Source: Elusimicrobia bacterium CG1_02_56_21
GTDB taxonomy: Bacteria > Elusimicrobiota > Elusimicrobia > Elusimicrobiales > UBA9959
Assembly: GCA_001871115.1 (NCBI GenBank)
Contig: MNUR01000122.1
Span: 1 to 64,000 of the forward strand
Length of the DNA stretch: 64,000 nt
Direction of reading: 5' to 3'
Each line of letters opens with the position of its first letter. The first letter of the stretch is position 1. Under the pieces are notes generated by a model. That model ran no database searches. It was not told the origin of the DNA and saw only the letters and a program-made list of their open reading frames with translations. Below, one piece after another: positions 1,123 to 62,648 of the stretch. Position numbers and translations under genes: made by a program.

Positions 1123-1737
1123 TTATTTCTTTTCAACCAAAGTCATCCCGCATTTAGGGCACTTGCCGGGCTTGTCGCCCTGGTAGTCTCCCATAGGGCA
1201 GACGTACATCCTGGCTGAGGGTTCCTTTGCTTCTTTCACTTCTTTCATAGCCATACCGCATTTGGGACATTTGCCGGGCTTTTTGGATTTAACGCAGCCC
1301 ATAGGGCAGGCGTAGGCCTTGTGCATCGCGGCCTTATTTTCCTTCATGTCCATGCCGCACTTGGGGCATTTGCCGGGCTTGTCGGATTCCGCGCAGCCCA
1401 TGGGGCAGACGTAGGCTTTATGCATTGCGGTCTCGTTTTTCTTCATGTCCATGCCGCACTTGGGGCATTTGCCGGGCTTATCCGATTCCGCGCAGCCCAT
1501 GGGGCAGACGTAGGCGGCCTTGCCGGGAGCCTTAGCCGAGACTTCTTCTTCGCTGCCTCCGGCGCAGCATGCGCAGGTCTTTTTATTACTTTTCTCGCCG
1601 GGCAGGGCCTCCTGGCCATCCCCGGCTTTCTGCATTGCGGCTTCGGCGCCTTTGTGGGCATGTCCGCCGTCCGCGGCGAAAGACGGAGAATATCCGAGTG
1701 CAAGGGCGAATACGCCCAGTAATATAATTTTATTCAT
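1123..1737 (-). CDS. Exported protein with four heavy-metal-binding (HMBD) repeats
   Basis: The 204-residue product has a signal peptide (MNKIILLGVFALALGYSPSFA), a His-containing linker, a KKTCACCAGG motif near residue 55 and four HMBD-type repeats at about 76-99, 109-132, 142-165 and 178-201. Each repeat has the form YxCPMG...KPGKCPKCGM, with a 33-residue period for the first three. The domain is normally found singly at the N-terminus of CusB proteins and P-type ATPases and binds soft metals through its cysteines. Here the usual CPMH is CPMG in every copy. The start is the second ATG of ATGATG, which has the better spacing from AAGGAGG; the stop of the upstream 66-aa gene overlaps it, so translation is probably coupled. 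A periplasmic metal sponge or carrier for the CusCBA pump is the likely role (inference). The metal is unknown. Confidence 0.85.
   Translation of the reverse strand: MNKIILLGVFALALGYSPSFAADGGHAHKGAEAAMQKAGDGQEALPGEKSNKKTCACCAGGSEEEVSAKAPGKAAYVCPMGCAESDKPGKCPKCGMDMKKNETAMHKAYVCPMGCAESDKPGKCPKCGMDMKENKAAMHKAYACPMGCVKSKKPGKCPKCGMAMKEVKEAKEPSARMYVCPMGDYQGDKPGKCPKCGMTLVEKK
1244..1540 (-). repeat. Three tandem 99-bp coding repeats (HMBD units)
   Basis: Units start at 1244, 1343 and 1442, exactly 99 bp apart. The last two are nearly identical in sequence, while the first is more diverged. This points to recent in-frame duplication of a metal-binding module. A fourth, diverged protein repeat lies at the C-terminus. 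Confidence 0.85.
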
Positions 1738-45790: not shown

Positions 45791-45863
45791 GATGGAGGAC
45801 TAGAGGACTGGCTATAAGGAGTTCCTTGCTGCTAATCATCCAATCTTCCGGTCCTCTAATCCT
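45791..45863. repeat. Quasi-palindrome with 8-bp quasi-periodic arms
   Basis: It fills exactly the gap between the convergent glyS and NUDIX stop codons. GAGGACTAGAGGAC (45795-45808) pairs with GTCCTCTAATCCTC (45851-45864) with one G-U-type mismatch. Each arm is made of 8-bp near-repeats (for example ATTAGAGG repeated). The apex holds a small perfect hairpin, AAGGA-GT-TCCTT. It probably terminates both transcripts, but no T run is present. Confidence 0.7.
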
Positions 45864-46334
45864 CTAATTACAGTCGCCGAGATAGACTGGGCCGCGCAGG
45901 AGCCCCCCCGGGCTTATGAGAGTTTTAAGCAGCGAGGGATATAGCCTTATCCCCTCCAGCTTGCCCAGGGCTATCCAGCTGACCCCGGTCTGGCGTTTAT
46001 CCGGTTCCCTGGTCCCGCCCCTGAACCTCTTGATATATTTGCATTTAAACATTATTTCTACCTGGTGGAAGTTCCCGCCCAGGCTGAAAAACTCATGATT
46101 TTTGGCCACATAATCGCGTATATAGCGGGGTTCACCCGGCTCCACCAGGGCGCCGGTCTCTTCTATGCATTCCCTGATCAGGGCTTCGTGCAGGGTTTCT
46201 CCGTTCTTCTGCCCCCCGCCCGGCAGCAGATAGTAAACCCCCGAGCTGTCGCGCGCCCTCATCAGCAGGAGCCTGTCATTCCTTATAATAATTGCTTTGG
46301 CCGAAATCCGGACTTTTTTGTCTTTGGTGATCAT
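45864..46334 (-). CDS. NUDIX hydrolase
   Basis: The 156-residue protein has the NUDIX box at about residues 39-61 (GGQKNGETLHEALI-RECIEETG), matching GX5EX7REUXEEXGU. The N-terminal strand KAIIIRNDRLLLMRAR and a following HQVEIMFKCKYIKR strand fit the fold. Such enzymes hydrolyse nucleoside diphosphate derivatives; the substrate is unknown. It is encoded convergent with glyS. Confidence 0.92.
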   Translation of the reverse strand: MITKDKKVRISAKAIIIRNDRLLLMRARDSSGVYYLLPGGGQKNGETLHEALIRECIEETGALVEPGEPRYIRDYVAKNHEFFSLGGNFHQVEIMFKCKYIKRFRGGTREPDKRQTGVSWIALGKLEGIRLYPSLLKTLISPGGLLRGPVYLGDCN

Positions 46335-60827: not shown

Positions 60828-61643
60828 ATGAAACCTAATGACTTTATGAAATTCATGGAAAAGGCCAAAATGTACGACCTTACCCAGCCCCTGAGCATAC
60901 ATACCCCCCCCTGGCCCAGCTATATGCCGCTGCAGCTGCAGTATTTCAAGCGCATAGCCGGGGCGCATATGGGGCAGGGCGCCAACGGCCAGATAATGAC
61001 CACCTCCAACCATGTCGGAACCCATATGGACGGCGAGATACATTTTTATAGCGCAGGCCGCACTATAGGTGAAGTTCCTATGAAGGAATGGGTGGGCAAT
61101 GCGGTCATTGTAGATATTTCGAAGGATGTGGGCGACTATGACCTTTATGAGCCGGAGCTGCTTATGAAGCGCGCGGACATCCGCAAAGGCGATATCCTGA
61201 TCATTAATACCGGCTACCATAAATACGCCTGGTACGAGAAGAATGTCTGCGACGAAGTCCGCTATTTCTGCAAGCATCCCGGCCCCGGCCCCAAATTTCA
61301 TAAGTGGGCGCTGGACATGAAATTCAAGTGGATAGGCGTGGACTGCGGCTCGGCCGACCATCCCATGAATACCATAATCCGCAATTGGCACCCCAAGCTT
61401 TTTGTGGAAGCGGAAAACAAGCTTAAGGCTAAGTACGGCAAAGCCTGGGATGAAATGTTCCCCTTTGAGGAGTACTACCAGGTCATGCACCTGAAGCTTT
61501 TCCCCAAGCGCCTCGTACACGCCGAAAATATCGGCGGCGAGATAGACAAGCTTTCCAACAAGCGCTGCTGGCTGGGTTTCTTCCCCCTCAAAGGAATGGA
61601 GCTCGAGTCGGCTATGGGCAGGGTAGTGGCCTGGACCGCTTAA
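60828..61643 (+). CDS. Cyclase-family metal-dependent hydrolase
   Basis: The 271-residue protein matches the cyclase/kynurenine formamidase family (PF04199): YDLTQPLSIHTPPWP at the start, the metal-binding SNHVGTHMD (HxGTHxD) and GVDCGSADHPM. It is about 50 residues longer than the common form. Members hydrolyse amides or formamides; the substrate here is unknown. Being upstream of a molybdenum hydroxylase may indicate a catabolic pathway for a heterocycle. Confidence 0.85.
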   Translation: MKPNDFMKFMEKAKMYDLTQPLSIHTPPWPSYMPLQLQYFKRIAGAHMGQGANGQIMTTSNHVGTHMDGEIHFYSAGRTIGEVPMKEWVGNAVIVDISKDVGDYDLYEPELLMKRADIRKGDILIINTGYHKYAWYEKNVCDEVRYFCKHPGPGPKFHKWALDMKFKWIGVDCGSADHPMNTIIRNWHPKLFVEAENKLKAKYGKAWDEMFPFEEYYQVMHLKLFPKRLVHAENIGGEIDKLSNKRCWLGFFPLKGMELESAMGRVVAWTA

Positions 61644-61649
61644 ACGCAG

Positions 61650-61746
61650 AGTCGGGAATCGGGGATCGAGGGTCGGGAATCACGGAAAACTCCGTATGCT
61701 TATCCCCAGTTCCCGGTTCCTGATTCCAGATTCTCGATTTTTTGGG
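61650..61746 (+). terminator. Quasi-palindromic terminator with 7-bp quasi-periodic arms
   Basis: The left arm (61650-61682) and the right arm (about 61703-61739) are each built of 7-bp near-repeats (such as AGTCGGG then AATCGGG). They pair imperfectly over about 33 bp. The apex is a perfect ACGGA-AAAC-TCCGT hairpin (61682-61695). The element ends in T6 (61738-61743), so it can terminate the cyclase transcript. It lies between the cyclase stop and the FAD-subunit SD. Confidence 0.7.
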
Positions 61747-61754
61747 GAGGATTT

Positions 61755-62648
61755 ATGCCGATAACGACAGAATTTGAATATGTGAAGCCGAAGGACATGG
61801 AAGAAGCCCTCCATGTCTTTTCGCTTTACAGGGAGAAAGCCAGGGCGCTGGCGGGCGGTACGGACCTGGTGGTCCGCCTGAAGGAAAACCTGGCCCGCCC
61901 CGAAGTGGTGGTGGATGTAAAAGGCCTGCCGGAACTCGCGGGACTTTCTTTTAAGGGGGGCACGCTCCGGATAGGCGCGCTCGTGACATTTTCAGACCTC
62001 ATAGATTCGCCGTTTATAAAGAGCAAATTCCCGCTTCTCTGGGAGGCTTCCAGGACGGTAGCTTCGGTCGGGGTAAGAAACCGCGCTACGGTAGCAGGCA
62101 ATATCTGCTCAGCCGTGCCCTCCGCCGACTCGGCCCCCGTGCTGGCTGTTTACGAAGCCGGGGTCCTGACCCGCAGCCTGAAGGGAGAGCGCAGGATACC
62201 GCTCGGGGACTGGTTCACCGGCCCTAAAAAAACTTCCCTGCAGCCTGACGAGATAGTTACCGCTATAGAAATCAAACTGCCGAAAAAGAAGCATGCCGGC
62301 TGCTATATGAAGCTTTCGCGCTACGAGGGTGAAGACCTGGCCCAGGGCGGTATAGCCGTCCTGGCCTTCTCTGACAATACTTACCGCCTGGCTGTCTGCG
62401 CGCTGGGGCCGAAGCCGGTCCGCTGCCCCGGGACCGAGGCCGTGCTCAACGGAAACAAGCTCAGCGAGAAGCTGATCTTAAAAGCAGGGGCCGCCATACT
62501 GCGGGAAATCTCCCCGATAAGCGATATCCGCTCCTCCAAAGAATACCGCCTGCACATGACCGGGATAATGCTGGGCCGCGCGCTGGAAACAGCGGTGGCC
62601 CGGCTGTTTAAAAAGGGCCCGAAATACGGGACCGGGAATATTTGCTAG
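61755..62648 (+). CDS. Molybdenum hydroxylase FAD-binding subunit
   Basis: The 297-residue protein (CoxM/XdhB type) has FAD-loop ARALAGGTDLVVRLKE, ASVGVRNRATVAGNICSAVPSADSAPVLAV and the C-terminal CO-dehydrogenase FAD domain. With the 2Fe-2S and molybdopterin subunits it forms a xanthine-dehydrogenase-family enzyme. The TxGGN motif that binds isoalloxazine is present as TVAGNICSA. The substrate is unknown. Confidence 0.95.
   Translation: MPITTEFEYVKPKDMEEALHVFSLYREKARALAGGTDLVVRLKENLARPEVVVDVKGLPELAGLSFKGGTLRIGALVTFSDLIDSPFIKSKFPLLWEASRTVASVGVRNRATVAGNICSAVPSADSAPVLAVYEAGVLTRSLKGERRIPLGDWFTGPKKTSLQPDEIVTAIEIKLPKKKHAGCYMKLSRYEGEDLAQGGIAVLAFSDNTYRLAVCALGPKPVRCPGTEAVLNGNKLSEKLILKAGAAILREISPISDIRSSKEYRLHMTGIMLGRALETAVARLFKKGPKYGTGNIC

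What the first reader, a model, noticed from the sequence alone, without database searches (positions are those of the whole stretch)
61650..61746. Second quasi-palindrome, 7-bp period, ending in T6
Same architecture as 45791-45863 but another unit (RRTCGGG-like) and a different period. Independent sequences with the same design imply a generating process, such as templated slippage plus strand switching, or selection for long purine/pyrimidine stems. It may be a new class of terminator or DNA structure element.
Basis: seen in the sequence. Interest (0 to 1): 0.6.

Follow-up and report, generated by a model that had tools for sequence, protein, structure and literature searches.

The report
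Miniature mobile palindromes built from 7-mers
The odd hairpin between two genes is one of about 43 copies in this genome of a palindrome built from 7-letter repeats, and it appears to be the gene-less form of a little-known mobile element that, in at least five bacterial phyla, carries a small four-helix-bundle protein gene in the loop of just such a palindrome.

Summary
An imperfect palindrome of RRTCGGG-type heptamers (arms 61648-61686 and 61703-61741, then T6) fills the gap between a cyclase gene and a molybdenum-hydroxylase subunit gene in an Elusimicrobia genome. The heptamer occurs at about 43 loci there (83 hits, reversed control 0). The 45791 element is a second family with an 8-bp unit.

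In congeners the same gap holds an ordinary GC-rich hairpin, another heptamer palindrome (TAGCG or AGTC units), or heptamer arrays flanking a PF05635 gene (23S-rRNA intervening-sequence / four-helix-bundle / S23 protein) that lies in the loop. This architecture is general: 25 of 26 intact PF05635 genes examined, from five phyla, are flanked by inverted 7- or 8-bp arrays, against 1 of 182 control small genes. Cyanobacterial plasmids with near-identical flanks but no insert show that arms and gene are gained or lost as one unit (428 bp, 98% flank identity).

Best explanation: the target is the ORF-less, miniature form of this mobile element. In co-directional gaps G.U and A.C mismatches are equally common (79:85), unlike plain hairpins (130:76), so arm pairing looks maintained at DNA level. 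Transposition mechanism, trans-mobilisation and termination are inferred, not shown.

The parts
61644..61754 (+). 111-bp gap between the cyclase gene and the FAD-binding subunit gene, nearly filled by the element
61648..61686 (+). 5' arm: purine-rich 7-bp units (GTCGGGA/ATCGGGG/ATCGAGG/GTCGGGA)
61687..61702 (+). apical loop AAACTCCGTATGCTTA (weak match to the AACTCC loop core seen in related elements)
61703..61741 (+). 3' arm: inverted, pyrimidine-rich units
61738..61743 (+). T6 run at the end of the 3' arm
61744..61750 (+). GGGGAGG, probable ribosome-binding site of the next gene, directly after the element
   Evidence: inference
60828..61643 (+). upstream CDS, putative cyclase (PF04199)
61755..62648 (+). 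downstream CDS, FAD-binding subunit of a molybdenum hydroxylase (PF00941, PF03450)
45793..45866 (.). second element of the same design, 8-bp unit (AGAGGACT / TCCTCTAA), between convergent genes

Best explanation
The quasi-palindrome is the ORF-less, miniature form of a mobile-element family. The full form is: purine-rich array of 7- or 8-bp units, then a PF05635 gene of about 105-140 codons (23S-rRNA intervening-sequence protein / four-helix bundle / S23p), then the inverted array. It inserts in gaps between genes, often a few bases after a stop codon. Shown: the architecture, its recurrence in several phyla, insertion or loss as one unit on plasmids, and the presence of full forms in the gap orthologous to the target. 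Inferred: that the target descends from, or is moved by, such elements; that slippage multiplies the unit and hairpin-templated copying keeps the two arms complementary, so each lineage ends with its own unit; and that the transcript of the inserted palindrome takes over the hairpin role (3'-end protection, processing or attenuation) that the gap has in relatives.
For: Copies dispersed at about 43 loci in this genome. The same gap in relatives holds compact hairpins, TCG heptamers (7 genomes), AGTC and TAGCG heptamers, and three PF05635 genes enclosed by inverted CAAGTC heptamers; on a tree of 39 rows parsimony needs 11 state changes, 7 if heptamer/IVP is scored against the rest. The three ORFs match PF05635 at 117-122 bits, cut-off 33.8. 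A PF05635 gene in this same genome (C89) lies in an 8-mer palindrome of the 45791 family, and in G033 one lies in an AGTCTAA palindrome like the ORF-less one in the neighbouring gap. Inverted arrays around 5 of 5 Elusimicrobia and 16 of 16 plasmid genes, best lag 7 in 18 and 8 in 3; in a further set 4 of 5 intact genes; control small genes 1 of 182 at score 14 or more. In G032 the arrays flank the gene by coordinates. Empty sites: insert of exactly 428 bp, flank identity 0.983 over 1305 bp, GTAAT at both ends; other presence/absence sites; an ORF-less palindrome with related arms at the same site as a full element (L295 against L275). PF05635 over cut-off in 6 of 11 heptamer-rich and 1 of 21 heptamer-poor congeners (Fisher p 0.003). 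Arms pair better in register (0.77) than slid by one unit (0.68) in the 42 elements long enough to test.
Against: The target itself has no PF05635 gene or recognisable remnant, and no alignable empty site exists for it. The unit in the full forms of the orthologous gap (CAAGTC) differs from the target's, so no direct descent is shown. G027 has 136 heptamer hits and no PF05635 match; G011 and G021 also lack one. The flanking GTAAT was found at one site only; other junctions are less clean. Nostoc HK-01 fails, and one Elusimicrobia case (C89) is weak (p 0.045). Several plasmid cases are related to each other. The in-register advantage could also come from the search picking the best register.
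Confidence: 0.7

Rival explanations
1. An ordinary operon hairpin (terminator, attenuator or 3'-end protector) whose stem grew in place by slippage of a short repeat, kept pairing by hairpin-templated mutation. PF05635 genes then used such palindromes as landing sites.
For: Nearly every congener compared has a hairpin in this gap. Elements lie within a few bases of stop codons. T6 follows the 3' arm.
Against: No G.U excess in co-directional gaps, unlike plain hairpins. Dozens to hundreds of hits per genome share one genome-specific unit, which local slippage does not explain. Empty sites on plasmids lack arrays and gene together.
Confidence: 0.17
2. Paired tandem binding sites of a global DNA-binding regulator, as proposed for Geobacter arrays of hepta- and octanucleotides on opposite strands.
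For: Same layout described in Geobacter metallireducens (PMC2700814). Units tolerate mainly transitions around a fixed core (seen).
Against: Different units in closely related genomes and two or more units in one genome would need many proteins. Location right after stop codons, rarely in divergent promoter gaps (3 of 43).
Confidence: 0.06
3. REP/BIME-type palindromes moved by a Y1 (RAYT) transposase.
For: PF01797 genes are present in this genome.
Against: They are equally present in congeners with few or no heptamers (G009, G012, G014, G016, G022); the elements have no conserved primary sequence.
Confidence: 0.03

Closest known systems
Intervening sequences (IVS) of 23S rRNA with an S23p/IVP ORF (e.g. 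the 428-nt Coxiella burnetii IVS, PMC4990558)
   Same: Inverted terminal sequences forming a stem, a PF05635-type ORF in the loop, similar size, described as a selfish element
   Different: Here between protein genes, not in rRNA; arms are 7/8-bp iterated arrays whose unit differs between lineages; most copies lack the ORF
Geobacter metallireducens hepta/octanucleotide arrays on opposite strands (PMC2700814)
   Same: Inverted pairs of tandem 7- or 8-mers (GTTGCTYN, MTYCTGA) at variable distance, multicopy
   Different: Read there as regulator binding sites; no link to PF05635 or mobility noted in the passages read
Nostoc tRNA-Leu intron P6b stem built from one of two 7-nt motifs (PMC4476775), and cyanobacterial heptamer repeats
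   Same: Stem of 7-nt repeats, with replacement of one unit by another at the same place
   Different: Inside a group I intron; no ORF
TAACTGA direct heptamer repeats of Beggiatoaceae (PMC4679880)
   Same: Abundant intergenic 7-mers
   Different: Direct, not inverted, and upstream of start codons
DGR target hairpin with Avd (PMC3240598)
   Same: Avd resembles PF05635 proteins (sub-cut-off matches) and DGR homing needs a DNA hairpin/cruciform whose stem structure, not sequence, matters
   Different: No template or variable repeat was looked for or seen here; heptamer-rich G018 has no RVT_1 reverse transcriptase

Membership tests
23S-rRNA intervening sequence (IVS) | inserted in a 23S rRNA gene | tested here: not met
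   intergenic, between protein genes; no Rfam match in the window
23S-rRNA intervening sequence (IVS) | inverted ends forming a stem | tested here: met
23S-rRNA intervening sequence (IVS) | S23p/IVP ORF in the loop | tested here: not met
   absent in the 16-nt loop of the target; present in the orthologous gap of L130, L145, L146
23S-rRNA intervening sequence (IVS) | excision from RNA by RNase III | not testable with these tools
   needs RNA work
PF05635 palindrome element (family proposed here) | inverted arrays of 7- or 8-bp purine-rich units | tested here: met
   lag 7, p 7e-13; purine-rich 5' arm in 46 of 47 elements
PF05635 palindrome element (family proposed here) | PF05635 ORF between the arrays | tested here: not met
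   target is ORF-less; hence called a miniature form by inference
PF05635 palindrome element (family proposed here) | insertion as one unit at an empty site | tested here: inconclusive
   shown for plasmid members; relatives of the target have diverged flanks, so its own junction cannot be read
Intrinsic terminator | GC-rich stem, short loop, U-run | tested here: inconclusive
   T6 and a stable fold, but not found by the consensus scan and directly followed by a probable ribosome-binding site
REP/RAYT element | conserved palindrome sequence linked to a Y1 transposase | tested here: not met
   no conserved primary sequence between families; PF01797 presence does not follow heptamer presence

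The most novel reading that the evidence does not exclude
A widespread, so far unrecognised class of bacterial mobile element whose terminal inverted repeats are rewritable 7/8-bp arrays: family identity lies in period, purine polarity and palindromic layout, not in sequence. PF05635 (S23/IVP) proteins are its mobility or maintenance factor, and many orphan heptamer hairpins in bacterial genomes are its miniature derivatives.
Probability: 0.4. Interest if true: 0.9.

Novelty: new variant of a known kind. Interest (0 to 1): 0.72.

Why it matters
It ties together things that have been described apart: the functionally uncharacterised S23/IVP four-helix-bundle proteins, heptamer repeats in cyanobacteria, and paired hepta/octamer arrays in Geobacter. 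It gives PF05635, a relative of the retroelement protein Avd, a concrete substrate to test (the palindrome around its gene). It also shows that a genome-specific short word can take over conserved hairpin positions, which raises a testable question about how complementary arms are copied and renewed.

Tried and rejected
Rfam scan of the window: nothing. RNA-level selection on the stem: no G.U excess. RAYT transposase as driver: presence does not track the heptamers. Reverse transcriptase as an obligatory partner: no RVT_1 match in heptamer-rich G018, G002, G011, G021. PF05635 as obligatory in every heptamer-rich genome: G011, G021 and G027 lack it. PF05635 relatives in IMG/VR and in phage records: none found. 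The gene calls used for context come from a simple script, weakest for G033 and G027. A loop core TTAAGGAGTTCCTTA common to unrelated arms is strong only in G033 (35 hits against 1 for the reversed control).

Full report
Observation. The window lies in a 3.0-Mb Elusimicrobia genome (G000, contig C10; named relatives). The gap 61644-61754 between a putative cyclase gene and an FAD-binding molybdenum-hydroxylase subunit gene is nearly filled by a quasi-palindrome of 7-bp units, arms 61648-61686 and 61703-61741, 16-nt loop, then T6 at 61738-61743. The + strand RNA fold is far better than shuffles (z -3.6); the - strand is not. Both observations hold.

Dispersal. The heptamer pattern has 83 hits in the genome, reversed control 0, in 43 loci. 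It is abundant in some congeners and absent from others. The 8-mer has 87 hits here and 0-1 in four congeners. A unit-blind search for inverted repeats in 0.16-0.76 Mb of each of five genomes finds the periodic class at lags 7 and 8 (27 and 10 at p<1e-5, other lags few), with none in G013. Other units occur in relatives, e.g. AGGGTAG, AAGGATA and AGTCTAA in G033 and CAAGTC-type arrays with 297, 232 and 465 hits in G032, G034 and G035 (the reversed control is 0 or 1 in the first two but 57 in G035).

Context and strand test. Elements begin within a few bases of the upstream stop codon and are rare in divergent gaps. Mismatches in co-directional gaps are G.U 79, A.C 85 for periodic elements, against 130:76 for plain hairpins (p 2e-4; difference p 0.004). 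So pairing does not look kept by RNA wobble selection; this points to a DNA-level origin of the arms. The target element alone does lean to G.U (9 against 3). The purine-rich arm is 5' in 46 of 47. Pairing in register is better than one unit off (0.77 against 0.68), as expected if arms are copied from each other, although the search itself favours the best register.

Orthologous gap. In congeners the gap holds a short GC-rich hairpin in most genomes without heptamers, TCG-heptamer palindromes in seven, AGTC heptamers in G033 and TAGCG heptamers in UBA9634; a few have none. In three MAGs (L130, L145, L146) it holds a PF05635 gene between inverted CAAGTC arrays. A gene tree of 39 rows needs 11 changes of state, though many of its branches are weakly supported.

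The PF05635 link. PF05635 genes elsewhere in Elusimicrobia show the same layout: in this genome (C89) inside an 8-mer palindrome like the 45791 family, weakly (p 0.045), and in G033 inside an AGTCTAA palindrome one gene away from an ORF-less one. Sixteen plasmid genes from cyanobacteria, Gemmatirosa and Azospirillum all have inverted flanking arrays, best lag 7 or 8 in all 21 cases. A second set tested the prediction: Riemerella, Leptolyngbya, Euhalothece and a second Nostoc C052 gene pass, Nostoc HK-01 fails; of three fragments one passes clearly. Over all, 25 of 26 intact genes. Only 1 of 182 other small genes scores 14 or more. Some plasmid cases are homologous insertions, so the number of independent events is smaller.

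Mobility. Blast of filled plasmid loci finds near-identical plasmids without the insert. For Trichormus plasmid C against Nostoc linckia the insert is exactly 428 bp, both arrays included, with flanks 98.3% identical over 1305 bp and GTAAT at both ends. L295 carries an ORF-less palindrome with related arms at the site where L275 has a full element. Several insertions lie inside operons, e.g. between cas6 and cas4 and between cas10 and cmr3. Direction (gain or loss) is not polarised, but six or more plasmids share the empty state.

Interpretation. The best reading is that the target is a miniature, ORF-less member of this element family, now occupying a position that carries a hairpin in its relatives. 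Shown: architecture, dispersal, recurrence at the same gap, presence/absence of full forms as one unit on plasmids. Inferred: descent of the target, trans-mobilisation, the slippage-plus-templating process, and any RNA role. The protein family is related to the retroelement protein Avd (sub-cut-off matches), and DGR homing depends on a DNA hairpin, which suggests but does not show a retro-type mechanism; reverse transcriptase is missing from several heptamer-rich genomes.

Known relatives. IVS elements of 23S rRNA have stem, ORF and size in common. Geobacter arrays, Nostoc P6b stems and Beggiatoaceae heptamers share parts of the design. No paper found in the searches made links PF05635 to heptamer palindromes; the library lacks most subscription journals, so novelty is not proven.

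Noticed in passing
L277, L278, L279 (Anabaena 90, Picosynechococcus 7003, Pseudanabaena plasmids): PF05635 elements sit inside CRISPR operons: twice between cas6 and cas4 with different units, once between cas10 and cmr3.
   Followed up: partly
G033, e.g. G033:C8:13687-13701 (L215) and 34 further places: A loop core TTAAGGAGTTCCTTA recurs in palindromes with unrelated arms (35 hits, reversed control 1); looser versions occur in the loops of G000, G018 and G027. Unexplained.
   Followed up: partly
L017:2202-2307, L018:8038-8143, L018:11213-11326, L091:2897-3021, L093:15278-15400: Another dispersed long inverted repeat in this genome (GCCCCGCGAACCC... core), non-periodic; not studied.
   Followed up: no
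L201:10926-10992 (G018), L237:17090-17141 (G013): Near-perfect palindromes with a GGGGACAGGCTACTT core in two congeners, possibly REP-like.
   Followed up: no
window 1240-1515: 99-bp tandem repeat, 2.8 copies, 87% matches; not examined.
   Followed up: no
G003:C69:13436-13699 and G019:C143:3048-3341: Sub-cut-off PF05635 matches lie next to RVT_1 genes, so these are probably DGR Avd proteins.
   Followed up: no
L130:3820-4040: Larger tandem repeat made of heptamer blocks plus a CAGAATTTCTG palindrome, upstream of the PF05635 gene.
   Followed up: no
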